The position numbers and the translations under genes were made by a program. Shown piece after piece: positions 8,844-43,424 of a stretch of DNA of 46,579 bases. The notes under the pieces are model-generated. The model was not told the DNA's origin and made no database searches. It worked only from the letters and a program-made list of their open reading frames with translations. Position 1 is the first letter of the stretch, and each line of letters opens with the position of its first letter. This stretch comes from Priapulus caudatus (lineage: Eukaryota > Priapulida > Priapulimorpha > Priapulimorphida > Priapulidae), in contig NW_014577657.1 of NCBI RefSeq assembly GCF_000485595.1, forward strand, positions 128,386 to 174,964. The letters are read 5' to 3'.

Positions 8844-8881
8844 CAAGAGTAGATAATAACATGTGTTATTATCTACTCTTG
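8844..8881. mobile_element. Tiny CARGAG palindromic element (38 bp)
   Basis: It opens CAAGAGTAGATAATAAC, ends with the exact reverse complement, and has a 4-base loop. ATATATAT lies on both sides. Confidence 0.7.
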
Positions 8882-8884
8882 ATA

Positions 8885-9844
8885 TATATATATATCGTTG
8901 ATATATATCTTATTAGCAAAACAGAATCCTGCCTGAAATGCGAAGGAATGTTGTAATGACCTTGGTAGACGTACTGTTTTTTAGTATAAATAACGCATGC
9001 AATGCATAGCTAGAATGTTTATAGTGTTGAACGCTTGTAACATAAAATAATGTGTGTGGCCCGTTTAGAATTGTTACAGTAATCTCGACTAGTTATCGGT
9101 GTAACTGAAGTATATATAGATTTGTTCGATGCGGTATAGCATAAAGCGTGAGATGTTCGTCTATGTTCTACGTTATATTAACACTAGCGTTAAAAACTCG
9201 TTTTTTTAATCACTCGCGATTCTTTCTGGCGAATTTCGTTTTTCTTGGATTCTTGGACATTTTAGTAATCTGGCTTGCTTTGGTAGTTTAATAAAAAAAA
9301 CTACTGAGAAATGGAAACACGCCCGAATATTTACGGTGAACTGAGATTTGGCGGTACGCCATCAGGAATCTCCTGTAGGTCTTTCATTAATGAGCTCGCT
9401 TGTAGAAGAGAGGCCACTATTTATCATGCCTCAAGCTATACATCGTTATACACTGTTATTAACATGGAAACGTAACCATTATACATATATATATTTTCGT
9501 CTAATTAGTAAAAGTAATTACTTATTAAAGATATATATATATATATATATATATATATTACCAACGTAACGTATTTTGTTCTGTGTTGCTTAATTATTTG
9601 TTACATGCCTAATTATGGTTACCAAATCTTATCGAGCCGTCGTAACGCAACGTCAGTCAAAGATTCAAGGCGGTATGAAATGTAAATCTCGGCATAACAC
9701 CATGCAGTGTAGTCTCTTTATTGCAGTACACGCGGATGGTATAATTTAGTCCCATAGTTCGTGGTGTACCTAAGCTCTTATATCTCTTGCTGTGTGCTTA
9801 CCTTATCTCACGCGTTGTGCTCCCATCTCAACGCTGTTGTGGTT
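8885..9844. other. Unassigned AT-rich stretch with a short (AT)n run
   Basis: No gene is recognised. A perfect (AT)n microsatellite lies at about 9529-9557. Confidence 0.5.
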
Positions 9845-10280
9845 AAACTCATCTCGTGGGTGCTCTGCTTGATCTCCCATCTCATGTGCTTAGTTTGAAC
9901 TCCCATCTCACGTGCTTAGCTTGAACTCCCATCACACGTGCTTAGCTTGAACTCCCATCTCACGTTTACTGTGCTTAAACTCCCTCGATCACGGGCTTAG
10001 ATTGAACTCCCATCTCACGTGTGCTATGCTTAAACTCCCTCACGGGCTTAGCTTGAACTCCCATCTCACGTGTGCTTAGATTGAACTCCCATCTCACGTG
10101 TGCTATGCTTGAACTCCCTCACGGGCTTGGCTTGAATTCCCATCTCACGTGCTTAGATTGAACTCTCATGTTACGTGTGCTATGCTTAAACTCCCTCACG
10201 GGCTTAGCTTGAACTCCCATCTCACGTGCTTAGATTGAACTCTCATGTCACGTGTGCTATGCTTGAACTCCATCTCCACG
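9845..10280. repeat. Minisatellite with 26-28 bp unit and higher-order structure
   Basis: This is a tandem array with consensus near GCTTAGATTGAACTCCCATC plus TCACGT. Variant units (TGCTATGCTTAAACTCCCTC) recur at regular intervals, so the array has a higher-order period of about 80 bp. There are no unique spacers and no coding function. Confidence 0.85.
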
Positions 10281-10582
10281 GATGTAAATCAAAACACTGA
10301 AATTATGAATTACCCCACATAACAACGATGATGTAGACAAACCTATACAGAAACAATATATAAGATGACATAGATGCTATAATACCATCAATTACAGTGA
10401 TATATAATACGCTATAGAATCCCATCTCACTTTTTTGTACAGTTTTAGCGTTCTCAGTAAAATATGTTTTATCAAATTTTCAGAGGAAGATGATTTCCAG
10501 TGATGTAGTTGTGGGAGGTTGCGTGTTATTAAACCTCTGGGAGCCAAAGAAAAAAATAACTATAGAATTCACAAATATTGCA

Positions 10583-10860
10583 CTTACAATTTCTTTTTCA
10601 ATTCCTTCAAAAACGGCCACCTTGAAGGTTCTAAATTGCTAAAATCCAAGAGCTTCCGGGTGCTCCGCCCCCTGGACCCCGGGCAATGACTCTGCCCCTG
10701 CACCTGGCAAGGGGCCCTAACGCGCAGGCGGGCCCCTCGACCCCACCCATTAAGGTACTCGCGGTGTGCGCTACGCGCACACATTCTTCGTATACGTTGT
10801 GATGGAAGTAACAGCGAAATCATTCCCCCCCACAACTGAGTACCTGTCTACGCCACTGGT
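10583..10860 (-). mobile_element. hAT-like interspersed repeat (CAGTGGCGTAG terminus)
   Basis: On the minus strand it starts CCAGTGGCGTAGACAGG, followed by a G-run, a GCG-rich box and a GGGGTCCAGGGGGCGGAG block. This arrangement resembles a common non-autonomous repeat of marine invertebrates. The far boundary is uncertain. There is no transposase, and the open frame on this strand is incidental. Confidence 0.5.
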
Positions 10861-11061
10861 TGAGGCACACCCAGACGTACCTCGTCCACACACATATGCT
10901 TGTTATAAGTAACATAAATACGTTAAAAAACATAATATGTCGCGACATACACCCGCACGTTTGTACGCGCTCGCCACACCCAGACCCCCCTTTCTCGATC
11001 CTTCTCCCCCCCCCCTTTTATACGTATCTACTTATGCCATGCTGTCACGGCTTAGCGGAAC

Positions 11062-11575
11062 GGTAGTATCGGAAACGAAGACCTCGAAAACGAAGACCTA
11101 AGACCTAAGACCTCGAAAACAAAGACCTAAGACCTAAGACCTCAAAAACAAAGACCTCGAAAAATATACTAAAGCACTAAAAATCTTCGTTAATTGGTGT
11201 TTCGCAAACATTGTCTACCATATCCGCAAATAATAGCAGGGTCTTCGTTTTCGAGATTACCCCCCCCCCCAAAAAAAAATCTCGAAAACAAACACCCCCA
11301 TTTTTTTAGCCGAATTAATGACTATCAATGTAGACAACACTAGAATTAAAGGCATTTATAACAGTGGGAGACGAGATAATTTTTCGCAAGAAAACAGGCA
11401 ACCCATGCACAGTTTATTTGGAACAACAACCATTTAGTCAAGTTCACTATGTCCAGATATTAAGTTTCGTGAACTTTTTGGGGGGATTTGCGAACCTAGA
11501 CATTTTCGGAATCTGTATAGTATAGGAAATCAGAAAACCAATGTTTACAATTTGCCAGAAGCATGCATGGTGCTG
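11062..11575. repeat. Left TIR of the 6.6 kb element
   Basis: The outer part is a tandem of AACGAAGACCTAAGACCT-type units. These are followed by a poly-C/poly-A block at 11261-11279 and a unique inner part ending near CAGAAGCATGCATG. All three sections are found inverted on the right side. Confidence 0.8.
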
Positions 11576-12508
11576 ATGCTGATGTGGGATGCTGATGTTC
11601 CCGGAGAGCTGATAGCACCACCTCTGATCATAGGTGATGCACAAAGTTTATCGGTCACCCCATACAAAGTAGATGTGCTGCACTGTGACAAGCCCAAGCC
11701 GCAGCCAACCCAGAGGACAGAGGACTTCACCATCAACGAGGTGGGAGTCTCTGGCTCATATCAGCTGACACAGCTGGGATGGGTTGACGCCTCTTTTCTA
11801 TCCAGGATGAAAGACGGCAGACATTCCAGCCAAATCCCTGGTTGGGCAGGCTACAACTCACTGCTGTCTACAAACCAGTCCGTGACCAGGGTTGGAGCTT
11901 TACTACTACTGCCAGAGGTGGCACACGAGTGGCCGACCCTACTGACTGTGATCATGCAAGCAAGTCAGCTGAGGTACTTGGCAGTTGGTGAAGATCATCC
12001 GACGGTCATTTCATTTGACATGGATCTCTACGAAAAGGTGGTGCAACTGCTAGATGCCAGGCCTGACTTGAAGCACACCGTTGTCCCCAGACTGGGCGAA
12101 CTACACGTCGTCATGGCTGCTCTGCGAGCTCTCGGAGCCCCCATGGAAAACTCCGGCATAGATGATGCCTGGATGGAAGCTGATGTCTATGGTTCTGCCA
12201 CAACAAGACAAATCCTGAAATGCACACACTACGAGCGTGCTTTCCGTGCCCACATCTATTCATATATAGCACTCTATGAGATGGCACTGGAGGAGTTCTT
12301 CACGGACAACCCACAACTGAAAGACATCTGCTTAGAAGCTGCCTGCTCTGAGGGGAACAAATGCACAAAGGCTGAATCCGTGAAACATGTATGCTGCCAT
12401 GTATTGACAAGGCAAAGTTGATACACCTCCTTGAGAAGCTGGGAACAGCAGAACCACCCGATGAAGATCAGCAGCAGCAGCTGCATGATGCAAGTGTTCT
12501 GCAGCGAG
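11552..12508 (+). pseudogene. 5' part of a transposon-borne multi-copy invertebrate gene (broken)
   Basis: The frame is open from 11552 to 12421 (289 codons). It then shifts near 12390, and reading continues as IDKAKLIHLLEKLGTAEPPD to about 12508, where the retroelement interrupts. Segments such as GWAGYNSLLS, SFDMDLYEKVVQLL, RLGELHVVMAALRALG and VYGSATTRQILKCTHYERAF match a family I recall as high-copy 'uncharacterized protein' in corals and other marine invertebrates. The first ATG lies inside the left TIR, so the usual N-terminal region is absent. No function is established. The continuation lies at 15500-16580. Confidence 0.65.
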
Positions 12509-12639
12509 GTTTTATTCGGTCCTAGTACTGGGCTGTGCCAATACACTGAATCCCCACTGCTAACTTCTGATCTTTTGCTCTTTTATTACTGGTAGAGGAA
12601 ACGCATCGGATCTCGTAATTGAGTTTAAACGTCTCTAAT

Positions 12640-12981
12640 CTATACACATTTTCCATTCGCCAGTCTTTTTCTTAACAAGAAGGACCCCTGATCGAACTCG
12701 ATTGACGGTCTAATTAATCCTGCCTTTAATAAAGCTTAAACCTGGTTGTCTACTTCCTTTTGCTGAGAAATTGACATACGATACGGAGATGTTTTGAACG
12801 GTAAATTGGTTCCAGTATCAATTTTCATTTTGTATAATTTTGTACGACTTAACTCGGCATCTGTATGCGCGAACGTTGATCTATGTGCCTTTAAGAATGT
12901 TAAGAGTCGTGCTCTGTGTTGCGGATTAGTTAAGTGCTTAACTAATGAATCGTAATCAAATTGTTTCTCTCTTATGCTCAT
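12640..12981 (-). pseudogene. Reverse transcriptase N-terminal fragment (copy A)
   Basis: YKMKIDTGTNLPFKTSPYRM and KEVDNQV are the pre-finger block of gypsy-type RT. The VKKK and CID..RRLN motifs follow after a frameshift. The catalytic YXDD region is absent because of the internal deletion. Confidence 0.75.
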
Positions 12982-13168
12982 CGTGATTCTGCGTGTTAGC
13001 AGGTTTCATATTTCTATCTGCCTGCCGATGCAAGTGGCTATACTCCTTTTGCCTAATTCCATTAATCGACCGACGCTGTGCTCGATCGCCCGTAGTGCGT
13101 AGTGGAATCCTACGTTTCCTTAGCACGACAGACTTTCTACTACGCATTGCGAGTGGCTCTACAATCGC

Positions 13169-13810
13169 TTAAGTTGCCTTACGCGACAAGTGAACGCGTG
13201 AAGCTGATGCATTCGCTGACACATACATGCTGACGCAATGTATGCTTCCAATCTTTGTCACCCAATATACAGCTGGTACGACCTGCAGTCCCGGATAACG
13301 ATGGCAGATCTTGAGTGCTGCCGATTGCTGCACTAGAACATTTGTTCCCACTAGCAAATTCCCACTTACTAAACATTCGCAGTGAATCGTTTCAAAAGGC
13401 TTGATCCACCTGTAGCGTTGCACCACTGCTACACTGAGTGGTGGTAACGATTTGCCCCTTGCCTTACGACCAAATATAGGAATAACACTATTTCCTATCG
13501 ACAGGCATGCGTTATCAAAATCGACACTTGCATTTGTATGCTTGAGAAAATCCGCGCCTATAATCACTTGTGTTGGGAACCCCTTGATAATATACATGGT
13601 ACAGTTAAACGTAACTCTGCCTATTTTAATGGGTATGGTGACGCTTCCCTTAACTTCTACACGTTGCCCTGTGACGGATTATAAGTCCGCTGTAACTGCA
13701 CTACAGAAATTCGCAGTATCTGTAACACGCTCTGGCAGTCTTTGCCAAATCGCTTCATCTAAAAGGGTACACTCGGATCCCGTATCTATTAGTGCTGTAA
13801 GTGTAATCCC
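13169..13810 (-). pseudogene. Retroelement aspartic protease region (copy A)
   Basis: The active-site motif LIDTGSECTLL is encoded at about 13761-13793 on the minus strand. QVIIGADFLKHTNASVDF (second protease motif, 'GADFL') follows in the open frame 13597-13169. A frameshift separates the two parts. Confidence 0.75.
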
Positions 13811-13994
13811 GGATACTCGAATCTCGCAGCACGGCATTGCGGTTATCGATCTATCAGCCGTGGATGACGGTACGCTTAAACTTTATTCGTCACTATGGAC
13901 GTGATGATTGTGTATACGTCTGCGTATAAACATTTCTCGGTCCAAAACTGATTGTTTCACAGCTAATTCGATCGCGTCCTGTAATTTGCATACT

Positions 13995-14393
13995 TTATGT
14001 GACAATAATAGCTTCTGTATAGCTACGCTGTTGAGCCCGTCCAAAAATATGTCCGTAAGACGTTTTTGACTTAATTCCTGATAAACTTGGTGGGGGAATC
14101 GCTATTTCCGCTAGATGGATTAGTTGGTCTGCATAAGTTCGTATTTCCTCATGTTGATTTTGACGAAAACTTTTTAATTTGATATTCGCTATTAATCCCT
14201 TCAACGGATTTGTAAATCGTGTGCATAAAGCTTCGTAAAAACTCGGCCAAAAAATTTCGGGCGTCTTCGAGAGTAGATGGCGCGTGAAGTCAGCAGCAGG
14301 CCCGTGCAATGTGCTTATAGCAAAATTCACAAGTTTGCTATCAGATAATTTTAATTGAATTCGAGACCATGTTAAGGCTGCTTGCCATTGCAT
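13995..14393 (-). pseudogene. Retroelement gag capsid region (copy A)
   Basis: This is a 132-codon open frame with W..FYEALCTRFTNPLK, RQNQHEEIRTYADQLIHLAE and an upstream WQAALTWSRIQL segment. These match the retrotransposon gag family. The last residues are shifted out of frame. Confidence 0.75.
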
Positions 14394-15116
14394 AAAGGTG
14401 GGTACACCTTTATGTTCTTAAAGTTCTTTCCTCGAAAATTTTGGCATTTCTCGACGCAATTCCGAAACTCGTGTGCTATGAGCAAAACAGTTTACCACAC
14501 TGTCGAGTAATGGGTTAACCGCTTCACTAAAACACGTGCCATCGTTTCTATAACCGAGAAATTCATAGTAGTAATTTTTTAAGCTTCGTGGCATGCATTG
14601 GAAGCCCTGCAGCTTATGGGCACATACAAATGTATACTGGTAATTTTCACCTGCAACGAGTTACCTCTCTTTCCGCGAGTCACTCACGCAAGATACGCGA
14701 CACTAGAGTGTAACTCTTTTTGTGTGACAATGCTGAATGCTCTGACTAATCGTACGTGTTTAGACCGTTGTTGTCGGCACAACGGAGCTATATATTCTAC
14801 GTGAACTCGATCGTGACCGCTCGGTGACTGACGACCTGACGCGATGCTTTGGCCGTGGCGGGAAGTGTGACTCCGCGCTATCTATATTATATCTCTCCGC
14901 GGCTTTGTGTAGGCATAAGGACGTCAAACGGTGAGCAGCAGCTTGCTGCTGTCTATTCCGTAACGCAGCGACGACATAGCAACTGATTACGACAATGGGA
15001 CAAGGCGCTGTAATTACCATCGGTTATTGGGGGGATTGTGACGCGAACACGCCAATATTGAAGTCAGAGAATTACATACGCGCTATAATCATGTAGCGTA
15101 GCAGCTATAGGCGCTT

Positions 15117-15117
15117 A

Positions 15118-15152
<35 letters not shown>

Positions 15153-15157
15153 TATAT
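15117..15157. repeat. (ATT)n microsatellite
   Basis: This is a short trinucleotide run directly before a tiny palindromic element. Copy B has a shorter imperfect version at 25408-25450. Confidence 0.9.
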
Positions 15158-15197
15158 CAAGAGTCCATAATAGAAAATTTTCTATTATGGACTATTG
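15158..15197. mobile_element. Tiny CARGAG palindromic element in retroelement copy A (40 bp)
   Basis: The arms are CAAGAGTCCATAATAGAAAA and TTTTCTATTATGGACTATTG. The 7-bp ATTATAT lies on both sides. The same insertion is present in copy B at 25452-25490, so it predates the duplication of this segment. Confidence 0.7.
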
Positions 15198-15386
15198 ATT
15201 ATATCTTAGGATTGTGGACCTGCGCGCACTTCTCTATCTTCACTATACCCTCAACACATGGCTCACGACGACTCCCTGTAACGGCGAGAGATCATTGAAA
15301 TGAGGTATGAAACGTTTATGTCGCCTGTCGGAGACGGAGGAGAATTAGAGGAAATAGAATACGTTACATGAAGATATCGATGTTAC

Positions 15387-15444
<58 letters not shown>

Positions 15445-15469
15445 NNNNNNNNNNNNNNNNNNNNNNNNN
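15445..15469. other. Assembly gap of 25 N inside a (GA)n run
   Basis: (GA)n from about 15390 runs into 25 undetermined bases. The true length of missing sequence is unknown. Copy B has more than 200 bp of GA-rich sequence at the matching position. Confidence 0.98.
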
Positions 15470-15499
15470 GGGAGGATAAGATCCTATCCAATATCAGAT

Positions 15500-16580
15500 C
15501 AGAGATGAACACCAAGCACAACACATCCAAATGAGAACGGGTCCTTTCCACCACCAAAACGAAGGCTGATCTGACTGAGTATCTGGCAAGCAAATAACCC
15601 TGGAGTACAACAGAGACTCGCCAAAGGCTGGTATCGCAATTGCTGTCAGGACGCTACTAGGGATCAATAGCGCGCCTGCTACATTGAGGACAACCAATCA
15701 CGAGAAGAGCGGACACAACTCTGATCTATCCATGCAGTGCTGGCATTCACAGAAAGAGACCCACCTGAAGCAGATGGTGGTCTCTCCGCAGACAGTGTAG
15801 TTCTGGTGCTGGTCATTAGCAGCATTTTTATGACCTTCTGCTGATAAAGACACGTCCATGTCGATGGCGTTCCGGAGTGGTTCCAAGTGGCAGGGCAATA
15901 TGGACAGATTCTAGGTCGAGAAAGAGCAATAGGGCTTTGCCAGCATTCCACGGCCATTCACCGGGGTCATAACAACAGCTGGAAGGCTTCTCTCGCATAC
16001 GCAAGCAACCTGCTGGAAGCTACCTCAAGTCAGGCCGAGAGTCATCAATGTGCTCTACAAGATGCCCTTCAGCATTGCACACGAAGTCACTGACGAAACT
16101 GCGTCCAACCGCTGCGCTACCCATTCGTCCTGTGCTGCGCATTACGCACCAAAAAAGGCATCCAGATGCGAGCTGCCCTGAGCTGCAATGGCATCTATTC
16201 TGCTAACATATGGGCTGAAAGTGCAAGCTGGCCCCCACCCTGTGTGCCTCAAGCACACTATCCACAGCGCGTCAGATCCAGGCGCACAGATGGGGTCAGG
16301 CAAGGCTATTGCTCAGCAGCAGTTCCTGATCTGCTGCAGCCTGCTTCTACAAGGACACTCATCTGATTCAGGTGAAACCGCCAATCAACAAGCTGAGTCC
16401 TCCAGCGCCCAAGGCATTCATTGAGAATGGGAATGCCAGTTGCAGAGGCAGACTGTTCAACAATCGTCGATGCTCTTTGGCAGTCCAATTAACTTATCAA
16501 TGCACATACTCTGGCCAGTGCAGGCATCTCTGTGCCGGCTAGAATGACTTGGACTCTATGAATCGAGCATGTTGCCGGAC
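15500..16580 (+). pseudogene. 3' part of the transposon-borne gene (many frameshifts)
   Basis: Read across all three plus frames, the segment follows the C-terminal half of the same multi-copy family as 11552-12508. Its order is a DLTEYLA-like block, ADTTLIYHA (about 15709), VVFS.D..VLVLVIS (about 15780), a degenerate FTG..T block (about 15956), a PELRWHLF-like block (about 16180) and APKAFIE (about 16407). It ends in a Cys-rich tail with CRGR and RCSL. The EADT, D.DV and TG.D spacing in the family suggests a PIN/FEN1-like nuclease fold, and the tail suggests a CXC-type zinc-binding motif. Both are inferences. No frame stays open for more than about 80 codons. Confidence 0.55.
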
Positions 16581-16964
16581 GTCAGGTGACAGTGAGATGA
16601 TGTTGAAGTTGTAAAGATTCTGCGTACTATATACAAAGATTTGCTGATATCGACACGCATTATTTGTCATCTAATCAATGAATATTGATTAGTTTTGAAA
16701 GAAGCTGCCTAGACAAGCTAGAGGTTGACTTGCCTACATGTAGAATTCTGATCCATTAGAACATTTATTATAAATAAAAGAAATATGCTAATCTGCCTTG
16801 TGGGTTATGGTTTAGCTGTATTTACTTTGTACTCACTGGCTTCGCCTCACCCCTGAAAAATGTATGTTAGGCTGCCTTTGAAAATATGATCCTAGCGCAC
16901 CTGAATGCTGAATATTGAAAACACGCCATTTTAAAGCGGCATTTTGCGAAAAATCCTAAGATGC

Positions 16965-17653
16965 CGCTATGCATGCCTTCCGCAACTTGTAAACATTGTT
17001 TCTGATTGCCTATACTATACGCAGAATTTCCGAAAATGTATAGGGTTTCTAAATCCCCCAACAAGTTCACCGAAATTACACAATGAACTTGACTAATTGC
17101 TTCTCGAGCGGCGGAACGTATTCTAAAGAAATGAAAGTAGCTCGTATAAATACGAATAGAGTGTGTGGTTTGAGCAGCAGGCTTGTCTACAGTTGATGAG
17201 TTAGTTAATTTCGCTGAAAAAATGGGGTCTTTCTTTTCGAGATTTGGGGGGGGGGGTAATCTCCGAAAACGAAGACGCGCTATTATTGCAGAATCGGGTC
17301 GTTGTTGTATCAGGTACTACAGATATGTATCCCCGAGGCAGTTTTAGTGTTAGTATACGTTTATATTTTTATAAGGCGGTATGGTTTAGGGTTGGGTTAG
17401 TGTTAGGACACTTTGTAATACATGTCTGGTACACCCTTTGTTATACATATATGTACTTCGGTACATATCTGTACCTGATACGACAAACCGACCCCTTGAT
17501 GCGCTATATTTTCGATATGTAAAGATCATGTTGTGAAACACCAATTAACGAAGATTTTTAAGCTGGGCTCTCAACGTATACTTTTTCGAGAGGTCTTTGT
17601 TCTAGGTCTTAGGTCTAGGTCTTTCGTTTCGAGGTCTTTGTTTCGATACTACC
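16965..17653. repeat. Right TIR of the 6.6 kb element
   Basis: This is the inverse of 11062-11575 with indels. It is longer because a short TIR element (17296-17494) has inserted into it. The poly-G block at 17247-17256 mirrors the poly-C block of the left TIR. Confidence 0.8.
17296..17494. mobile_element. Short TIR element 1 (about 0.2 kb) nested in the right TIR
   Basis: The left end GGGTCGTTGTTGTATCAGG is mirrored by CCTGATACGACAAACCGACC at the right. It is absent from the left TIR of the host element, so it inserted later. The interior includes a degenerate TTAGGG-like stretch (about 17386-17406). Confidence 0.7.
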
Positions 17654-17681
17654 TTAGGCGGAACAATACTACGCGCAGATG

Positions 17682-17891
17682 GGGTCGTTGTCGTATCAGC
17701 GTACTACAGATATTACCGAGTAGTTAGATGTTTAATATTATGTTTTACATAATTTTATATGAGGTAGTTTAGGTTAGGGTTAGTGTTAGGGTTAGGGACA
17801 CTTGCTGTAGTATCTAGTCTGGTACAACTTTGGTGTATACCATATATTACCGTCAGGTACATATCGTATTACCTTATAACGACAACGAACC
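17682..17891. mobile_element. Short TIR element 2, same family
   Basis: It begins GGGTCGTTGTCGTATCAG and ends ...AACGACAACGAACC. The interior has about four TTAGGG-like units (17768-17804). CCTTGATGC follows the right end in both family members, so the true boundary may be a few bases further out. Confidence 0.65.
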
Positions 17892-17980
17892 TTGATGCAA
17901 TACTAGGCACCAGCGGCTTTGTTATAAATTCCGGCCGCCGCGGTGAACGTGTTGACATGTGCCGATGAGTCATCAGCTGT

Positions 17981-18930
17981 TGGGGTCCATACCTAGTGTG
18001 TCCCGTTACCATATGTGTGCCCATACAGTGTACTATGTGTCCGCAGTACCCAGGTACCTATGTGTCCCGTACCCTATGTGTCCCAGTACTCCCAGGTACC
18101 TATGTGTCCGCGGACCTTAGTTCGCGCGGTACCTATTTTCCCGGTACCTATGTTCCAAGTACGCTATGTGTCCGTACCTTATGTTTCCCGGTACCTAGGT
18201 ATCCGCGGTACTCTATGGTCCCGGTACGTTATATCCGCAGTACCCCAGCCCTATTGTCCCGGTACCTATGTTTCCCGTACCTATGTCCCCATCATTAAAA
18301 GGGGGACTATAAAGTCATGAGAGAAAAAACTATGCTCCAATATGTCTCCCTTAAAAATGTCTTTTAATACAAATGAAATAATACTGGAATTACAGCACTT
18401 AACCTCTTAAATACGGGACTCAAAATTCTTATTAACACAAACAAAAAAATTCTGAAATCTCAAACTTAAATTCGCATCATTATAATAATATTAAAATATA
18501 ATGAAGTTAATAAAAGTCTGAATAAAACGATAATGGAAAATTAACATTTATAATCGATATAGTAGAAATGTATATATCTATGGCTATATACCATGGCAGT
18601 TACTTTTGCATGGTTTGTCCCCGCTTAATGCAAAAATGTGAACTGAACTGCATTTTTTTTATTTGAAAAATTAACTAGGCAAAAACATTTAATTGTTGTT
18701 AATTAATTTTTGCAGACGTAACAGCCTAGGCGCTAATCCTTAAATACCTTTGTTCGTTACTGGGAAACATAAGTACCGACACATAGGTACCTGGTGACTG
18801 GACACATAGGTAGGACACATAGTGCCTTGGATACTGGGACACATAGTACCGGACACCTAAGTGCCTGATAGCTGGACACATTAGTAACCGGAACCATAGT
18901 ACCTGGTACGACACATAAGGTAGGACCCCA
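17981..18930. mobile_element. Foldback element with minisatellite arms
   Basis: The left arm (about 17981-18300) is a tandem array of about 18-bp units near CCCGGTACCTATGTGTCC. The right arm (about 18760-18930) is the same unit in inverse orientation (GGACACATAGGTACC). They are separated by about 450 bp of AT-rich DNA. The outermost bases, TGGGGTCC and GGACCCCA, are inverted copies. Terminal repeats made of tandem units are the hallmark of foldback elements. No transposase is present, and no target duplication is clear. Confidence 0.6.
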
Positions 18931-19109
18931 TCCCCCCTGTACTACTGCGATGGCATCATCTCTGCTATGGCGCAGTAAACCTATTTTCGTCGCCACATTA
19001 ACCCCGCCATATTCAAGTCGATTACCACCGGTAATTTAATCGGCTTGTCAGTCTCACTGAGTGATTACAAACATACATTTATAAATCAAGACACCAATGT
19101 AAACGAGAA

Positions 19110-21102
19110 TAGTGACGCTGAACATGTACGCGCTGTGTTACATAAACGTACCTGCCCTGAGATGGAGATCGAATGAAGACGGTCATGGGAGAGTATCAGG
19201 GCAGTAGGAAGGAGGATGAGCAGGAGGAGGAGGGGAGAAGGTGATGGAGTAGGGAGGAGAGGCAGCGAGAAAGGTGATGGAGAATCGAGTGAAGACGTCC
19301 TGGAGGAGCATAGAGGGCAGAGGAGGAGGAGGAGGGGGAGAAGGTGATGGACGTAGGGAAGAGGGGAAGAGAGGAGCGGAGACAGTAATGAATCGAATGA
19401 AAGACGGTCATGGAGGGAGGAGTAGGGGCAGAGGAGGAGAGGAGGAGAAAGAGGAGAGAAGTGAGGAGTAGGGGGAGTGAGAGAAGGCAGAGAAGGTGAG
19501 AAATCGAATGAAGACGTCATGAAGAGAAGTAAGGGGGCAGAGAGAGGAGGAGGAAGAGTGATGAGTAGGGGAGAGGAGAAGGAGAGAGAATGATGATAGG
19601 GAGAAGAGGAGGAGAGGGAGAAGGTGATGAGTAGGGGAGGCCTGGAAGGAGAAGGTAGAAGTAATGGAGGAGGAAGGGAGAATGTGATAGAGGAGAAAAG
19701 GAGATAAAGGAGGAGGAGGGGAGAAGTGATGGAGAGGAGTAGAGGTAGGGACAGCCTTCTCACATCTGCTCATCTAATCACTGTCTCCTCCTCCTCCCCT
19801 CCTCTCCTGCTGTCCCTAACTCTCCTCTATACCTTCCCCCTCATCCTCTCCTCCTCCTCCACGCTAATCCAACACCTTCTCCCTCCTTCTCACTGCGCTC
19901 CTACATTGCCTGCCCCCTCGCCGCCTCCCTACTCCAACACACGTCTCCTCTCCTCGCTCCTCTCTCCTCCCTCATCGCCACTACTCCAACACCTTCTCTC
20001 CTGCCCCTTCCTCGCTGCTCCTACTCCTCCATCACCTTCTCCGCCTCTCCTCCTCCTCCTCCACTACCCAACACTTCTCCTCCTCCTCCTCGCTCCCGCT
20101 TCCGCCTACTCCAAGCACCGCCCCCCCCCCCCGGCCCCCGCGCGCTCCTGCGTCTCCTTCTCCTCCTCCTCCTCATCCACCTATCATCCAACACCTTCTC
20201 CCCTCATCCTCCTCTCGCTCACCTCCCTCCCGCTCCCCTACTCCATCACTTCTCTCCTCCTTCCTCCTCCTCCTCCTCCTCTCTGCCCCCTCATCTCCTC
20301 CATGACGCTCTCATTCGATCTCCATCACCGTTCTCCGCTCCTAACCTCTTCTCGCCTCCCTCCCCCCCTCCTCCTCTCGTCCTCGCTCCCCTACCCACCC
20401 TTCTTCGCTCTCCTCCTCCTCCTGCCTCCTGCCCCTGCTACTGCCCATGCCCTCTTTCATTCGATCTCTCCATCACTTCTCGCTCGGCTCCTCCTCCTTC
20501 CTCGCCTCCTCCTCATCATCGCTCCCCCTACTGCCATCACCTTCTCTCCCCGCCTCGCTCCTACTCTCCTTCTGCCCCTACTCCTCCACATGACGTCTCA
20601 TTCGACTCCAATACTTATTCCCTCTTCCTCCCTCCTCCACCTCCTCCTCCTCCTCCTCTTCCCCACCTACTCCATTAACTCTTCTCCCTCGCGCCCCATC
20701 GCTTCTCTTCCTCCTCCTGCCCCCCTACTGCCTCCCTTCATGACCCTCTTCATTCGACTCTATCCCGCTTTTCGTTCTTCCTCTCCGCCTCCTCCCTCTA
20801 TCCTCCCCTCCTCTCCTCCCTCCCTGCCTCCTCGCCCATCCCCTCCTCCTCCTCCCCTCCTCCGCTCCCTCTAACTCCCCATCACCCTTCTCCCTCTCCT
20901 CCTTCTCACTGCCTCCTCCTCCTCCTCCCCCTGCCCCTACTCCTCCATGACCGTCTTCATTCGATTCCATCTCAGGGCAGGTACGTTTTATGTAAACACA
21001 GGGTACATATATGCTGAGAAGATACAGGTCTGGTACACCTAGCTGCGTATACATATACGTACCTCGCGTACATATCTGTAGTACCTGATACGACAACGAC
21101 CC
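19110..21102. repeat. Inverted purine/pyrimidine minisatellite with strand switch
   Basis: From about 19160 to 19755 the plus strand is a GGAG-rich minisatellite. From about 19785 to 20960 it is the CTCC-rich complement. Each arm contains a recurring box with CGAATGAAGAC about every 110 bp (left: 19170, 19283, 19394, 19505), or its inverse about every 150 bp on the right. Outside both arms, ACGTACCTGCCCTGAGATGG and its inverse define a longer inverted repeat. The right end has the same TACCTGATACGACAACGACC terminus as the short TIR elements at 17296 and 17682. Long ORFs here are low-complexity artefacts. Confidence 0.75.
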
Positions 21103-22419: not shown

Positions 22420-22866
22420 CTAATGGTAGTAAGTCTTCAAGTTCCTATTGCTTACTACTAACGCTGTCTGTTTCATCATCCATTCCGCGAACCGTTTTAG
22501 CGTGTCTAGGGAGTATATATCCCGCATTCTCGCACTGTCTTGCGCACCTAAATTATCTTCCCGCGTCTTCCAAGAATCAGACGGGTAAGCCGATCGCAGA
22601 CTATCAGCGTGTGCCCTATACGTATGGGTTTGTCCTTGATGCCCAATGCGGAATACTAATGGAGACAACTGCTCCACAATCGTAAAATATGGACGCCAAG
22701 CAGAATGAAATTTGGTGGTTTTATTCGGTCCTAGTACTGGGCTGTGCCAATACACTGAATCCCCCACTGCTAACTTCTGATCTTTTGCTCTTTTATTACT
22801 GGTAGAGGAAACGCATCGGATCTCGTAACTGAGTTTAAACGTCTGTAATCTATACACATTTTCCAT
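22420..22866 (-). pseudogene. RT start fused to integrase C-terminal domain (copy B)
   Basis: This is a 148-codon open frame. Its first part overlaps, in another frame, the RT block with CID and FPLP. From about residue 23 it reads SNKRAKDQKLAVGDSVYWHS, then KFHSAWRPYFTIVEQLSPLV, the SH3-like/GPY-type integrase tail. The junction reflects the deletion shared with copy A. Confidence 0.7.
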
Positions 22867-25451
22867 TTGCCAGTCTTTTTCTTAACAAGAAGGACCCCTG
22901 ATCGAACTCCATTCCGACATTGACGGTCTAATTAATCCTGCCTTTAATAAAGCTTTAACCTGGTTGTCTACTTCCTTTTTCTGAGAAAATTGACATATCG
23001 ATATCGGAGATGTTTTGAACGGTAAAATGTTCCAGTATCCGAATTTCATTTGTGTATAATTTTGTACGCGACTAACTCGCATCTGTAAGCGCGAACGTTG
23101 ATCTATGTGCGCTTTAAGAATGTAAGAGTCGTGCTCACTGTGTTGTGGCGATTAGTTAAGGTGCTATAACTAATGATATCGTAATACAAATTGGTTTTCT
23201 CTCTTATGCTCAATCGTGATTCTGCGTGTTAGGCAAGGTTTCATATTTCTATTCTGCCTGTCGATGCAAGTGGCTATACTCCTTTTGCTAAATTCCATTA
23301 AATCGACGCGACGCTGTGCTCGATCGCCCGTAGTGCGACCTAGTGGAATCCTACGTTTCCTTAGCACGACAGACTTTGCTACTACGCATTGGCGAGTGGC
23401 TCTGACAACGCTTAAGTTTGGCCCTTACGCGACAGTGAAGAACGCGTGAAGCTGATGCATTCTAACTACGCAATTGTATGCTTCCAAATCTTTGTCACCA
23501 ATATACAGCTGGTACGCACCTGGCAGCCGCCGGATAACGATGGCAGATCTTGAGTGCTGGCCGATGTTGCTGCACTAGAAACATTTGTTCCCACTAGCAA
23601 ATTCCACTAAACCATTCGCAGTGAATCGTTTCAAAAGGCTTGATCCACCTCTGTAGCAGTTGCACCACCTGCTACACTGAGTGGTGTAACGATTTGCCCC
23701 TTGCTTACAACGCAAATATAGGAATAACACTATTTCCTATCGGACAGGCATCGTTAACAAAATCGACACTTGCATTTGTATGCGTTGAGAAAATCCGCGC
23801 CTAATAATCACTTGTGTTGGGAACCCCTTGATAATACACATGGTTGACGGTAAACGTAACTCTGCCTATTTTTAATGGGATGGTGACGCCTTCCCTTAAC
23901 TTCTACCACGTTCGCCCTGTGAGCGATTATAAGTCCGCTGTAACTGCACTACAGAAATTCGCAGTATCTGTAAACGCTCTGGCAGTCTTTGCCAACTATC
24001 GCTTCAATCTAAAAGGGACACTCGGATCCCGTATCTATTAGGCTGTAAGTGTAATCCGGCGGATACTCTGAATCTCGCAGCACCCGGCAATTGCGGTTAT
24101 CGATCTATCAGCCGTGGATGACGGTAGACGCTTAAACTATTAATTCGTTACTGATGGACCGTGATGACTTGTGTATACGTCTGCGTATAAACAGTTTCCT
24201 CTGTCCAGAACTGATTGGTTTCCAGCTAATTCGATCGCGTCCTGTAATTTGCATAGCCTTATTGTGACAACTAATAGCTTCTGTATAGCTACGACTGTTG
24301 GAGCCCGGTTCCAAAAATATGTCCCGTAAGAAAACGTTTTGACTTAATTCCCTAGATAAAACTTAGTGGTGGGGAATCGCATTTTCCGCTAGAACGGATA
24401 AGTTGGTCTGCATAAGTTCGGATTTCTCATGTTGATTTGAACGAATAACTTTTTAATTCGATTATTCGCTATTAATACGCCTTCAACGGATTTGTAATAA
24501 TCGTGTGCTAAAGCTCGTAAAAACTCGGCGCAAAAATTTCGGGCGTCTTCGAGAGTAGATGGCGCGTGAAGTCAGCAGCAGGCCGCATGCCAATGTGCTT
24601 ATAGCAAAAGTTCACGAGTTTGCTTCAGATAATTTTAATTGAATTCGAGACACATGTTAAGGCTGCTTGCCATTGCATAAAGGTGGGTACACCTTTATTG
24701 TTCTAAAGTTCTTTCCTCGAAGAATTTTGGCATTCTCGACGCAATTCCGAAACTCGTGTGCTATGAGCAAAACAGTTTACGCACACTGTCGAGTAATCGG
24801 TTAACCGCTCACTAAAAACACCGTGCCATCGTCTTCTATAAACCGAGAAATTCTATCAGTAATTTTAAGCTCCGTGGCATGCATTGGAACCCTGGCAGCT
24901 TATGGCACATACAAAATGTATACTGGTATTTTCACCTGCACGATTACCTCTCTTTCCGCGATCACTCACGCAAGATACGCGACACTAGAGTGTAACTCTT
25001 TTTTGTGTGACAATGGCTGAAGCTCTGACTAATCGTACGTGTTAGACCGTTGTTGTCGGACAACGGAGGGCTATATATTCACTGGAAGCTCGATCGTGAC
25101 CAGCTCGGTGACTGACGACGCTGAGCGATGATTTGGCCGTGGCGGAAAGTGTGACTCGCGCGTAATACTATATTATGATCCTCTCCGCGCTTTGTGTAGG
25201 CATAAGGACGTCAAACGGATGAGCAGCAGCTTGCTGCCTGTCTATTCCGTAACGCAGCGACGTACATAGCAACTGATTAGCGACAATGGACCAAGGCGCC
25301 TGTAATTACCAATCGTATATGGGGGGATTGGTGACGCGAAACACCGCCAAATTGAAGTCAGAAATTACATACGAGCTATAATCATGTAGCGTACAGCTAT
25401 AGCGCTTATTATTATTATTTATAATTATTATTATATTATATTATATTATAT

Positions 25452-25490
25452 CAAGAGTCATATATAGAAAATTTTCTATTATGACTATTG
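25452..25490. mobile_element. Tiny CARGAG palindromic element in retroelement copy B (39 bp)
   Basis: This is the counterpart of 15158-15197, at the same place in the retroelement. It has small indels in the arms and the same ATTATAT-type flanks. Confidence 0.65.
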
Positions 25491-25676
25491 ATTATATCTT
25501 AGGATTGTGGACGCATTCGCGCACTTCCTATCTCACTATACCCTCACACATGGCTCACGACGACTCCTTAAGCGGCGAGAGAATATTGAAATGAGGTATG
25601 AAGCGTTTATGTCGCTGTCGGAGAACGGAGGAGATTAGAGGAAATCAGAATAACGTTACATGAAAGATATCGATGT

Positions 25677-25680
<4 letters not shown>

Positions 25681-25707
<27 letters not shown>

Positions 25708-25762
25708 TATGAGAGAGAGCGAGAGAGCGCGTGGAAAGGAGAGAGGGGAGAGAGAGCGATAT

Positions 25763-25820
<58 letters not shown>

Positions 25821-27049: not shown

Positions 27050-27110
<61 letters not shown>

Positions 27111-28179
27111 TTATTTATATATTTATTTATTTGTACAGAAGGAATCCAGTGTAAATATAATCCTTAATTCAAATAAATATGATTTGGACAAACCTTTTCA
27201 TCTTAGACAATCTTCAGGGAGTTTTGGTTTACACCTTTCATTTCATACGTGCAAAGAAGCGTTTAATTAACGACTTTTTCGGAGATCAAAATGAAGAGAT
27301 CGAATGCGCTAGAGTATTTTGTACAATTGCATTTCACTGACCATCAGCATTCGCTGCAGGACCATGTATGCCGTACGTTTTACTGATGGCAAGGAAATAT
27401 ATTTCCCTAATTTTGATTTCCCCTAATGACAATTACTCCGTCTGCCGTGATAATGTGTGATGCAAATATTTACAAACACCCTGCATTCGTCACCAGTAAA
27501 GCGAATTCGGATATAGGTTTGAGTGGCAGTGCTACGTTGTAATCGTTGTGTAGTCGCTATGTGTAGATCTTTATAATCTTACATGAACAGAGTGGACTTG
27601 TTAAACTCGTGCGAGGAAGTGTTTTGTACATGTAAGTTGTTGATATTAATCGGGTACAGAATTTAACAAGGGTAATCTTTTATTTGAAATATAACCTGGC
27701 TAAATATATGGTCCTTGGTGCACCAGTACTTATGCTGACGATCATGCGTAAATTTCGGACACCTGCGATCTATCTCATGAATTCATAATGCCAAAGGTAG
27801 CAAATAAACTGTCAAGAAAATGTTTGTGTTATTAACGCAGTGGCAAGCACATGTTTATATAATTTTGTTCGAATTGAATTATTTTTAAACTGTGATCACA
27901 GATAAGTTTTGGCACAAGATGTTAACTCGTTCTTAATGTTCTTAATAAAATACGAAAAAGCTAGATTCCGGAAAGAGTATGCCAACCAAGCGTGTCGCTC
28001 ACTATACCCCTCCCCCCACTCTTATTCTCTACCAACATTGATGGGATTTGTACTACTTTTGTGTCCGCCACATCAATCTTCTAAGAATTCGTGAATCCAC
28101 ATGATTACAAAGAAATATATGCAGTTAGATTAGCATGATCTATAGACAACTAACGTTCATGAGCGTATTGGGTATGAAT

Positions 28180-28218
28180 CAAGAGTAGATAATATAACAC
28201 TGTTATTATCTACTCTTG
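28180..28218. mobile_element. Tiny CARGAG palindromic element with exact 8-bp duplication
   Basis: It opens CAAGAGTAGATAATA and ends TATTATCTACTCTTG, 39 bp in all. GTATGAAT occurs at 28172-28179 and again at 28219-28226. This is the clearest target-site duplication in the family because the flank is not simple sequence. Confidence 0.85.
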
Positions 28219-28681
28219 GTATGAATAGAACCCGCGTATGTCACATGAGCGCCTAACAGGTACATATCCGTATATATCCCTATTTACATATCTACCTGCT
28301 GATTAACAGGTAGCTCTAGCCAATTAACGTTGCTATACCAGCATTTAAAAAACCTTGCTTAATAGTGAAGTGCGGCAAAATCGTAAGTTTTGTGTGCGCG
28401 CGTAAAAAAAACACGTACAGACTGGTCTCATCCTCTCATGATCCGACCTAGCAAAAATATCCAAGGCAAGCGTGGTTATCTCGCTAATATGGTTAGGCGA
28501 ATCGCCGCGAGAGAAATTCTTGTTATATCGAATAATGCAATACACGAAACAAAATTTTGTTTCGTGTTCCGCGTACGTACGTACATCGCTTGGGTGTGTG
28601 GTTACAAGTCGCCCTAGCAGCCAAAAAGCAGCAATTAATTATAGATAAAGCGCCGCTAAATTTGTGCTCCTACATAAGTAT

Positions 28682-28720
28682 CAAGAGTCCAAAATAGAAA
28701 TTGTCTATTATGGACTCTTG
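28682..28720. mobile_element. Tiny CARGAG palindromic element with exact 8-bp duplication
   Basis: It opens CAAGAGTCCAAAATAGA and ends TCTATTATGGACTCTTG, 39 bp in all. ATAAGTAT occurs at 28674-28681 and 28721-28728. Confidence 0.85.
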
Positions 28721-29633
28721 ATAAGTATGCATCGTATGCCTGCCTCCTATTTGGGATCGCTTACCTCTGTGCAAGAGCGTTATAGTCGAAACTAACAGTT
28801 GAACCAGATTCGACCGCCATTTCAGCATTGAAATATTGGAAAGTTCGTTAGATTTCGTTGTAGATATCGCGTGATAAAGATCGCAGCATTAAAGTGCAAA
28901 TCCGCCAAAAAAGCACATGGCCGTTCGAAGGGCATTTTGCGTGCTACAAGAGCCTACAATAATCGACGGTCTAAATTGAAGCGCCTCTGCATGTTTTGTT
29001 TTCGCGTGACTGGAATACAATCGATGACGAATTTCCAAATATAGCTGCTTTCGCTCATTATAATCCGCTGTCGCTACAACTACGTTAGTACACGATACAC
29101 GCTATGCAGGTTAGTAGGCCTACCACGCAGTGGGTATCTCCATATGGAGCCTGCAATATATTAGCCGTGGCCTATTGTGGAATGCTCTGTTCCGGCGAAA
29201 ATATACTATACGTAAAACTATCAATTCAATATACAATCAACATACTACTTTTCACTGGAAAGTGGCAATCGCGAACATTTTTATTTTTTGCGCCTGAAGA
29301 AGCAGCTTATACGGCAGGCAGGCAGGACAAAGACTGCATGTCAGCGCTGTCGTGCATATTTTTATTATTTATTTTTCGTTTTTAGCTCAAGAAAATTACA
29401 AAAATATACGTTTCCTGTAATCACGTTATACAGTTCTATTTTGTTGTGTATGCGCACGTTTTGACTTTGTATATATTGAGATGCGCTATATTTGTTATTT
29501 CCCCTGGAATTCCATAATTTCCGTTGACGTATGAGCGAAACGAAACACGGGACGCGCATTACCTACAAATGATGCCGACATTCTATACATTCATATATAA
29601 AGCCATATCCAGTAAGAGTTTAATCAATAATAT

Positions 29634-29675
29634 CAGGAGCGATGGGAAAGAAATGTTGGTTTTTATTCACTCCTG
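29634..29675. mobile_element. Tiny palindromic element, first of three in tandem (42 bp)
   Basis: The ends are CAGGAG and CTCCTG. The arms are less perfect than in other copies. ATAATAT lies on both sides. Confidence 0.65.
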
Positions 29676-29682
29676 ATAATAT

Positions 29683-29739
29683 CAAGAGCATATAAACCAA
29701 AAAAAATACCTAAATCAATAAAAGGTTTATCCGCTCTTG
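29683..29739. mobile_element. Tiny palindromic element, second of three (57 bp)
   Basis: The ends are CAAGAGCATATAAACC and GGTTTATCCGCTCTTG. ATAATAT flanks it on both sides (29676-29682 and 29740-29746). Confidence 0.7.
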
Positions 29740-29746
29740 ATAATAT

Positions 29747-29821
29747 CAGGAGTGAATAATAATAGATTATCTATCTATAAGATAAGATTATAGATAATCT
29801 ATTATTATTCACTAGCTCCTG
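29747..29821. mobile_element. Tiny palindromic element, third of three (75 bp)
   Basis: The ends are CAGGAGTGAATAATAATAG and CTATTATTATTCACTAGCTC plus CTG. The arms are about 30 bp and ATAATAT follows at 29822-29828. Confidence 0.75.
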
Positions 29822-30830: not shown

Positions 30831-31173
30831 CAGTGGAAATAGCTTTTGGATATATCAGTATCACCACCTCACCCCACGCAAAGTATTCAGGAAATTTCAT
30901 TGAGCGAACCTGCTAAACGTAATTGCCGTGTGAGTAAGTGAGAGATGTAGAGAAGTAGATGAAGATCATAGAGTAATTTTTGAACAAATTACACTAAATG
31001 TGAATGGCACAGTATGGATTTCGTTGTTTTACTCATAACGAGCACAAAAGGAAATTGCATAGAGGATATAATACTTCTCCGGGAATATTCTGCAACTACC
31101 CGTTTATTATATACGTACTCTGATAACATGTATATGCAAAACAGAATATACGATACATGCCAGGTAGATGGTA

Positions 31174-31220
31174 TCAAGAGCACATAAACGGCTCGAGAGC
31201 ACATAGTTTATCTGCTATTG
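31174..31220. mobile_element. Tiny palindromic element, diverged (47 bp)
   Basis: The ends are CAAGAGCACATAAAC and GTTTATCTGCTATTG. ATGGTAT on the left and ATGCTAT on the right look like a 7-bp duplication with one change. It belongs to the same subtype as 29683-29739. Confidence 0.6.
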
Positions 31221-31410
31221 ATGCTATTATTAGTACCTTTAGTTTACTTACCTTTACTTACCTATACCTTACTTACCTTTACTTTAGTTTACCTACCTTT
31301 AGTTACTGTTGAACCCATGCATCTAAGATCATTTCAAGAAATCATATTTTTCCTATTTATGTTGTAAATACGTTGGCACGTTTGAACCCGCTTGGCTAGT
31401 TCTTCTTGGT

Positions 31411-31720
31411 GTTCGTGGTTGTCATCTCCTTCTTCTTCTTCGTCGTCGTCGGCGACATTATCATCATCATCGTCGTCTTCTTCTTCTTCTTCTTCTTCTT
31501 CTTCTTCTTCTTCTTCTTCTTCTTCTTCTTCTTCTTCTTCTTCTTCTTCTTCTTCTTCTTCTTCTTCTTCTTCTTCTTCTTCTTCTTCTTCTTTCTTCTT
31601 CTTCTTCTTCTTTCTTTTTCTTCTTCTTCTTACTCTTCTTCTTCTTTTTCTTTTTCTTTTTTGCCACCTTCTTCGTCATCGTCATCGTCTTCTTCATCTT
31701 CTTTTTCTTCTTTTTGCACC
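31411..31720. repeat. (CTT)n microsatellite abutting a splice acceptor
   Basis: About 300 bp of CTT repeats with minor interruptions end at the CTAG acceptor of the bHLH exon. They form an unusually long polypyrimidine tract. The Ser, Phe and Arg runs in its open frames are not protein. Confidence 0.9.
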
Positions 31721-31726
31721 GACTAG

Positions 31727-42293
<10,567 letters not shown>

Positions 42294-43386
42294 TGTATAC
42301 GGGTGTATCTATATTAATGGCTGATATGTGAATGTGGACGTCTCATCACCAATGGTATCTATTAGACTGGTGAGCTGTGTATTCTCGGTGATTAATTAAA
42401 ATCTGCGTTAGTGTTGCGAATTCTTACATCGAAACAAAGTTAACAGATGTTTATTATGGTCCAAGATTTATTTCTGTTTGAAAACCGGCAGCGGAACCAA
42501 CGCATCTTGGTTTGAGGGCACAGCGTTGTGTCTTTTTGAATGTGACCGCCATTGCCCATGTAAAATACCTACGCGTCTTCTGGTGGCGGAGTTAACAACC
42601 CCCTTGCCCCCGCGCTAGCTACGGCCCCTAAAAACAATGTGAAATTTGATGACGATGTCGAAATCTTTTCTTATAAGGATGGAGGAGTGGTAAGTTAACT
42701 GTTTAGTAAAACTAGGTTTATCACGTGATGAGGTTGTAGCACGTACTTCCTCCTTCTAAACGCATCTACGTTCCTCATTTAATCCGTCCAATCCTGAATC
42801 TACAGATAGAATTACGTTTCACTCGCGTACCCCTGTCTGGATTTGCTAGTTGATGTAGCCTTTTCATTCTGGCTTCGCAATAATTAGTTTTGTATATGGC
42901 CTTCCACTAGTGCCACTTCGGAAACTGCGTTAGTTATTCCAGCGACAAAGGTCCTCGTCTGCCATAGGTAAAGCAATAAGCTGTTATACACATAATCTTT
43001 GGCGAGGCATGTCAAACGAGAAACTAGCCTCGACAGATCATGTAAGAATCCGTCTGAATGAGATCGAGAGCTTTATATAGAATGGGTGCGTCATCTGATT
43101 CGAGAGTTTCCGTATCTTGATGACTGCTATATTCACATTAGTCCAGCTGTGTTGACGCACGTTAGCGTATCTCAATTGTTATGAGACTCATTGCGTATCT
43201 AAATCGCTTTTATTCGTTTTTATGGTAACAACAGCCATATAAGAGAGTGAGATGTAAAAACACACTGAAATCGATAAAGACATGGACGAATAATTAAATA
43301 CGGTGTTTCCTTAATTATAAATTTATAAATGCGAGCTTTCATGATAGGGCTCTTCGTCGTGTCTCAATGATTATATATATATATAT
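42294..43386. other. 3' flank of the bHLH-PAS gene
   Basis: It contains the likely 3' UTR, then unassigned sequence. A GGGGCCGTAGCTAGCGCGG string (minus strand, near 42610) resembles the terminus of a marine-invertebrate repeat but is too short to define an element. Confidence 0.45.
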
Positions 43387-43424
43387 CAAGAGTGGATAAT
43401 AGAGATCTCTATTATCCACTCTTG
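43387..43424. mobile_element. Tiny CARGAG palindromic element (38 bp)
   Basis: It opens CAAGAGTGGATAATAGAGA and ends TCTCTATTATCCACTCTTG, a perfect palindrome with no loop. ATATATAT lies on both sides. Confidence 0.72.

What the first reader, a model, noticed from the sequence alone, without database searches (positions are those of the whole stretch)
8844..43424. A family of 38-75 bp palindromic mobile elements that are little more than two transposon ends
Twelve sites share CARGAG...CTCYTG termini: 787-1570, 8844, 15158, 25452, 28180, 28682, 29634, 29683, 29747, 31174, 36409 and 43387. Eleven of them are only 38-75 bp and consist of inverted ends with a loop of 0 to about 20 bases. At 28180 and 28682 the flanks are not simple sequence and show exact 8-bp duplications (GTATGAAT; ATAAGTAT), so these are insertions and not chance palindromes. 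CARNG-type ends with 8-bp duplications are known for hAT transposons, but mobile elements this short are far below normal MITE size. At least three arm subtypes exist (GTAGATAATA, GTCCATAATAGA, GCNNATAAAC), suggesting repeated origin or long activity. They may have arisen by end-to-end joining of TIRs and may be cut as hairpins. The mechanism is inference.
Basis: partly seen in the sequence, partly recalled or inferred. Interest (0 to 1): 0.88.

Follow-up and report, generated by a model that had tools for sequence, protein, structure and literature searches.

The report
Palindromic scars left by departed transposons
The tiny palindromes in this priapulid worm DNA are most likely not mobile elements but scars left where longer transposons were cut out, each keeping up to about 20 bases of both ends, so the genome carries a natural record of how a P-element-like enzyme cuts and how the animal repairs the break.

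Summary
In detail: all 12 sites exist, and 100 shuffles give none. The window is priapulid (Priapulus caudatus protein; G000:C597). A strict form of the palindrome occurs 1265 times in the genome, 0 in the reversed control. Of 41 sites read with flanks, 35 have exact 7-bp (29) or 8-bp (6) direct repeats.

The interpretation changes: these look like excision scars. Two intact parents (784 and 835 bp, ~320-bp inverted repeats) were found. In 22 palindromes of these families, 44 arms follow the parent for at most 20 nt. Genome-wide, 254 arms keep nt 1-20 of the first parent, 2 keep nt 21; 291 parent ends carry nt 21-22. In the second family 30 arms carry nt 21, denominator unknown. Drosophila P excision leaves 17-nt tails and the same kind of scar. 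The genome holds 64 P-superfamily domain matches; targets resemble Galileo's. No transposase was tied to these ends.

Verdict: scars of P-superfamily-like excision with a ~20-nt stagger, not hAT micro-MITEs.

The parts
787..1570 (+). Intact non-coding parent element, 784 bp, inverted repeats of about 320 bp, ends CAGGAGTAGATAATAGGGAA|GGAGTG
   Evidence: its 22-nt end occurs 291 times in the genome
779..786 (+). Left target duplication ATATATAT of 787-1570
   Evidence: removing the element plus 8 bp restores the host palindrome best, 138 of 143 positions
1571..1578 (+). Right target duplication ATATATAT of 787-1570
702..1636 (+). Host palindrome (CACTGGCAG...CTGCCAGTG) interrupted by 787-1570; serves as internal empty site
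8844..8881 (+). Scar, 38 bp, keeps 18 and 20 nt of the C1:151361 parent end; flanks (AT)n
15158..15197 (+). Scar, 40 bp, ATTATAT duplications at 15151-15157 and 15198-15204; inside a retroelement copy
25452..25490 (+). Same scar as 15158 in the second retroelement copy, with one-base losses at mirrored places in both arms
28180..28218 (+). Scar, 39 bp, GTATGAAT duplications at 28172-28179 and 28219-28226
28682..28720 (+). Scar, 39 bp, ATAAGTAT duplications at 28674-28681 and 28721-28728
29634..29675 (+). Scar, 42 bp, asymmetric (by eye about 7 nt kept on the left and 16 on the right); no significant hairpin; ATAATAT on both sides
29683..29739 (+). Scar with a filler of about 23 nt, 57 bp; ATAATAT on both sides
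29747..29821 (+). Scar with long self-complementary middle, 75 bp, mirror arms longer than 20 nt; ATAATAT on both sides
31175..31220 (+). Scar, 46 bp, filler copies the left tail (13 nt with one mismatch, 0 of 500 shuffles); imperfect duplication ATGGTAT/ATGCTAT
36409..36447 (+). Scar of the 787-type family, 39 bp, keeps 16 and 17 nt with filler AGAATA; flanks (AT)n
43387..43424 (+). Scar, perfect 38-bp palindrome; flanks (AT)n; the same palindrome also occurs at C7:285098

Best explanation
They are excision scars. A cut-and-paste transposon, probably of the P superfamily (Galileo-like: long inverted repeats, 7- or 8-bp target duplications), inserts at ATANTAT-like sites. Its transposase cuts one strand at the element boundary and the other about 20 nt inside the inverted repeat. 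The donor site is left with both target duplications and a ~20-nt tail from each end. End joining unites the two tails (whole, trimmed, or with filler, sometimes copied from the tails) and gives a ~40-bp palindrome flanked by the duplications. SHOWN: the palindromes, the duplications, two parents, the 20-nt limit in the 787-type family, templated fillers in some. INFERRED: the enzyme's identity, the polarity of the tails, the repair pathway, and that the scars no longer move.
For: 1265 strict palindromes, 0 reversed control. 35 of 41 sites with exact 7/8-bp repeats; the 29 exact 7-mers give ATANTAT. Two intact parents, 784 and 835 bp, ~320-bp TIRs, no long open frame, alike only at the first 15 bp. 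In the 22 palindromes that keep at least 17 parental nt on one arm (of 56 compared: 50 listed plus 6 of the window), 44 arms: 20 nt in 25, maximum 20. In all 50 listed palindromes of any family, exact mirror arms peak at 20 (13 of 50) and reach at most 21 (3 of 50). Genome-wide 254 arms with nt 1-20 of the 787 type but 2 with nt 21, against 291 parent ends with nt 21-22. Fly P junctions have this anatomy with 17-nt tails; 81 of 91 that I tabulated keep 8 or more nt on both sides, 24-78 bp, median 32. Fillers copied from tails: 31175 and 4 of 7 long fillers tested. 64 PF21787 matches in this genome, some in open frames of 716-827 aa. Galileo: foldback-like TIRs, 7- or 8-bp duplications, GTANTAC. 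An internal empty site fixes 8 bp for 787-1570.
Against: In the second family 30 arms carry the parent's nt 21 (A); 11 of these rows read exactly 20+A+20, which also fits a 21-nt tail, 5 rows carry G at nt 22 as the parent does, one of them AGA like parent nt 21-23 (read by eye); the matching 20-nt count did not complete, so the limit there rests on 9 scars. 29747 has mirror arms longer than 20 nt. Fillers of 29634, 29683 and 29747 show no significant templating, nor do 3 of 7. The search patterns demand the first 12-15 nt on both arms and gaps up to 30, so shorter tips and longer fillers are not counted. TIR likeness to Drosophila P (8-10 of 15) is weak: shuffle 0.03, and 0.15 with CA fixed. 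Whole-tail joins are common here (15 sites in the list, by eye) but rare in the fly tables, so repair differs. Identical 40-bp palindromes at different sites are also what a mobile mini-element would give.
Confidence: 0.87

Rival explanations
1. Micro-MITEs: the 38-75 bp palindromes are themselves mobilised in trans by a transposase that sees their ends.
For: Flanking duplications at 35 of 41 read sites; identical 40-bp palindromes at sites with different duplications.
Against: Arms stop at 20 nt of ~320-bp parental repeats, which suggests a measured cut; junction series and templated fillers at the centre; P and Galileo THAP-binding sites lie 41-70 bp from the ends, absent from 40 bp, if the enzyme is of that kind.
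Confidence: 0.07
2. In-situ internal deletions by abortive gap repair or palindrome collapse of long-TIR elements, without a fixed cut position.
For: Keeps both duplications; partial repair synthesis before end joining is reported for P; 29747 has arms longer than 20 nt.
Against: Retained length would vary along ~320 bp; instead 254 arms against 2 across nt 20/21 in the 787-type family.
Confidence: 0.04
3. Excision scars of a long-stagger transposon that is not of the P superfamily.
For: The 20-nt rule does not by itself name the enzyme; TIR likeness to P is weak; no gene tied to these ends.
Against: 7/8-bp ATANTAT duplications and foldback-like TIRs match Galileo; 64 P-superfamily domain matches in the genome; the review passages call the 17-nt stagger a feature that sets P apart from other characterised cut-and-paste transposons.
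Confidence: 0.1
4. Chance palindromes or simple-sequence artefacts.
For: Four of the window's twelve sites lie in (AT)n.
Against: 0 in 100 shuffles; 1265 against 0 genome-wide; 40 of 41 read sites have non-simple flanks.
Confidence: 0.001

Closest known systems
Drosophila P-element excision repair junctions (P{wa}; PMC2895639, passages and section 9 seen)
   Same: Target duplication, tail, optional filler, reverse-complement tail, target duplication; trimming at the centre; templated insertions
   Different: 17-nt tails, induced in the laboratory; here about 20 nt, natural, 1265 strict palindromes in one assembly, whole-tail joins common
Galileo (P superfamily; PMC4168063, PMC2775673 and PMC3688188, passages seen)
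   Same: Long foldback-like TIRs, 7-bp or occasionally 8-bp duplications, palindromic AT-rich target GTANTAC
   Different: No sequence comparison of TIRs was made; the intact copies seen here are 0.4-0.8 kb and two read in full are non-coding; the passages I saw describe no such scars
Zebrafish Pdre2/THAP9 (PMC10983969, passages seen)
   Same: P superfamily outside insects, 8-bp duplications
   Different: 13-bp TIR CATACCTGTCAAC, 3-5 of 13 like the window's ends
hAT MITEs and MADE1-like 80-bp palindromes (recalled)
   Same: Short inverted-repeat elements with duplications
   Different: Those transpose as units; hAT excision is recalled not to leave TIR tips

Membership tests
P superfamily excision scar | Both target duplications kept around two TIR tips joined head to head | tested here: met
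   35 of 41 sites exact 7/8 bp; window sites
P superfamily excision scar | Retained tips limited to a fixed tail length set by staggered cleavage | tested here: met
   20 nt in the 787-type family; second family only 9 scars, with 30 arms carrying nt 21 and no denominator
P superfamily excision scar | Tail length of 17 nt as in Drosophila P | tested here: not met
   About 20 nt here; whether 17 nt defines the superfamily is not known from the passages seen
P superfamily transposon (parents) | Transposase with the P-type RNase H domain (PF21787) inside the element | tested here: inconclusive
   64 matches in the genome, some of them parts of one gene; none tied to CARGAG ends; the two parents read are non-coding
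P superfamily transposon (parents) | 7- or 8-bp duplications | tested here: met
P superfamily transposon (parents) | TIR like known P TIRs | tested here: inconclusive
   8-10 of 15 v Drosophila P, 3-5 of 15 v hobo, 3-5 of 13 v Pdre2; shuffle 0.03 or 0.15
hAT | 8-bp duplications | tested here: not met
   29 of 35 exact repeats are 7 bp
   CARGA, position 5 is A
MITE | Transposes as a unit | not testable with these tools
   No population or relative genomes at hand

The most novel reading that the evidence does not exclude
Long staggered cleavage is a general trait of the P superfamily, with a tail length that differs by lineage (17 nt in flies, about 20 nt here). Scars at well over a thousand natural sites make an animal genome a readable archive of P-type excisions and of their end-joining outcomes.
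Probability: 0.6. Interest if true: 0.78.

Novelty: new variant of a known kind. Interest (0 to 1): 0.7.

Why it matters
In the passages I saw, the long stagger is measured for Drosophila P transposase only. Natural scars give the cut position of a relative without biochemistry and suggest it can be 20 nt. They also warn annotators: short palindromes with target duplications can be scars and not miniature transposons. Each scar would be one repaired double-strand break, so counts of whole, trimmed and templated joins could be read from an assembly.

Tried and rejected
hAT reading: rejected on duplication length, end sequence and scar anatomy. Micro-MITE and unmeasured deletion: disfavoured by the 20-nt limit. 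Matches outside this genome: a CAAGAG-only form of the palindrome, 0 in viral contigs and 0 in genome contigs; parent end 0 in viral contigs; relatives of P0053 in viral contigs none. P transposase remnants in the window: none convincing, best E 0.023. No Rfam or tRNA match. Paper searches that bear on natural P scars or very short MITEs listed no such report; one search returned mostly papers on mite animals and on surgery, and only an open-licence library was searched. One search (hAT end consensus) returned nothing useful. In one search the multiplicities typed beside each sequence were by eye, some wrong, and are not used; the 15 identical 40-bp sites are counted by eye from the list and the 22 parent pairs by eye from the list. 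Dropped before a count: one search keeps only palindromes with at least 17 parental nt on one arm (22 of 56); one search covers 41 of the 50 sites listed, the first listed of 1265; one search uses 91 junctions typed from Tables 1-3 where the legend gives 116 (left out: 21 long-microhomology rows and 2 others without both tails; 2 I could not account for) and then keeps 81 of 91.

Full report
WHAT IS THERE. The window carries 11 short inverted-repeat sequences of 38-75 bp (seven of them 38-40 bp) and one 784-bp element, with CARGAG...CTCYTG-type ends. Shuffled sequence gives none in 100 trials. An MFSD6-like reading frame in the window matches a named Priapulus caudatus protein at 100% over 97% of the query. 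The window lies at G000:C597:128386-174964 of a 385-Mb assembly in 2952 contigs.

THEY ARE INSERTION SITES. Exact 8-bp repeats flank 28180 and 28682; exact 7-bp repeats flank 15158, 25452, 29634, 29683 and 29747; 31175 has a 7-bp repeat with one mismatch; four sites, the 784-bp element among them, lie in (AT)n. The 784-bp element interrupts another palindrome (702-1636). Joining the flanks minus 8 bp restores that palindrome best (138 of 143 positions; 138 of 151 with nothing removed, 134 of 145 with 6 removed), so its duplication is 8 bp. Genome-wide, a strict pattern finds 1265 palindromes and none for the reversed control. I read 41 of the 50 sites that were listed: 29 have exact 7-bp repeats, 6 have 8-bp, 6 have none exact (four of these six differ by one base, by eye). 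The 29 exact 7-mers read ATANTAT.

WHAT THEY ARE. Two intact parents were found by asking for the same ends with matching duplications: 787-1570 in the window and C1:151361-152195 (835 bp, ATATTAT duplications). Both have inverted repeats of about 320 bp and no long open frame, and they are alike only at the first 15 bp. The 787-type end including nt 21-22 occurs 291 times; among the rows listed, 22 plus/minus pairs lie 398-813 bp apart (by eye). If the palindromes were random deletion products or free-living mini-elements, their arms should not stop at one place of the parents. They do: in the 22 palindromes that keep at least 17 nt of one of these two parents on one arm (of 56 compared), 25 of 44 arms keep exactly 20 nt and none keeps more. 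In all 50 listed palindromes, whatever the family, exact mirror arms are 20 nt in 13, 19 in 9, 18 in 8 and at most 21 (in 3). Genome-wide, 141+113 arms keep parent nt 1-20 of the 787 type within a short palindrome and 1+1 keep nt 21, both readable as one inserted base.

MECHANISM. A P-element transposase cuts the second strand 17 nt inside the inverted repeat (PMC7776569 passages). Donor sites then keep both 8-bp duplications and two 17-nt tails, and repaired junctions are duplication, tail, optional filler, reverse-complement tail, duplication (PMC2895639 passages and section 9). Of 91 junctions that I tabulated from its three tables, 81 keep 8 or more nt on both sides; they measure 24-78 bp, median 32. 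The window's 11 measure 38-75 bp, median 39. With ~20-nt tails the sizes shift as expected: whole joins of 40 bp, trimmed joins of 32-39 bp, filled joins up to 62 bp in the list, where the pattern limits the gap to 30 bases. Fillers copy the tails in some cases: 31175 and 4 of 7 long fillers; 29634, 29683 and 29747 show no significant copying. The row of three at 29634-29821, each flanked by ATAATAT, is best read as three visits to one target (inference).

WHICH TRANSPOSON. The genome has 64 matches over threshold to the P-superfamily RNase H domain PF21787, some adjacent pieces of one gene, three in open frames of 716-827 aa; none of the tool's 14 control genomes has one, but I was not told whether these include animals. 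Galileo, a P-superfamily element, has foldback-like long repeats, 7-bp and some 8-bp duplications, and target GTANTAC. The THAP-binding sites of P and Galileo lie 41-70 bp from the ends, so a 40-bp scar would lack them. The likeness of CARGAGYNNATAAWA to the Drosophila P end is only suggestive. No transposase gene was read together with CARGAG ends, so membership is likely but not proven.

RESULTS AGAINST. In the second family 16+14 arms carry the parent's nt 21. Eleven of those 30 rows read exactly 20+A+20, five carry G at nt 22 like the parent, one of them AGA as in the parent (by eye). The count of 20-nt arms did not complete, so the limit is less firm there and a 21-nt tail is possible. 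29747 has mirror arms longer than 20 nt; 29634 does not fold better than shuffles. Identical 40-bp palindromes recur at different sites (15 in the list, by eye); whole-tail joins explain this, but so would mobility. Whole-tail joins are common here and rare in the fly tables, so the repair preference differs or something else helps.

OTHER POINTS. 15158 and 25452 are the same scar in two 90%-identical retroelement copies; between them both arms lost one base at mirrored positions, beside one inserted base in one arm, which hints at arm-to-arm correction within palindromes, one case only. Four of 11 independent events in the window lie in (AT)n, against 0.4% of positions; (AT)n fits the target, but repeats may also have grown afterwards.

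Noticed in passing
window 702-1636: A second palindromic element, CACTGGCAG...CTGCCAGTG with ~66-bp matched arms or longer and an imperfect 10-bp flanking repeat GCTCAATATA/GCTCAATACA, hosts the 784-bp element.
   Followed up: partly
window 7629-8657: A 1029-bp element with ends ATGGGAGGGGAT, 8-bp repeat ATATATGT and 52-bp tandem repeats near one end; it holds a further palindrome at 8288-8426.
   Followed up: no
window 12508-15433 and 22717-25727: Two retroelement copies, 90% identical, in a region with a gag match and weak protease and integrase matches; both carry the same scar.
   Followed up: partly
window 15158-15197 v 25452-25490: Single-base losses at mirrored places in both arms of one inherited palindrome, possible arm-to-arm correction.
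   Followed up: partly
window 29634-29821: Three scars in a row separated by the same 7-mer ATAATAT.
   Followed up: partly
L019 (G000:C1:188263-188455): A 193-bp element with CAGGAGTGT ends and TTGGTAT duplications that contains a further, degenerate CAGGGG...CATTCCTG palindrome.
   Followed up: no
window 3236-5801: MFSD6-like gene matched in three pieces by a named P. caudatus protein.
   Followed up: no
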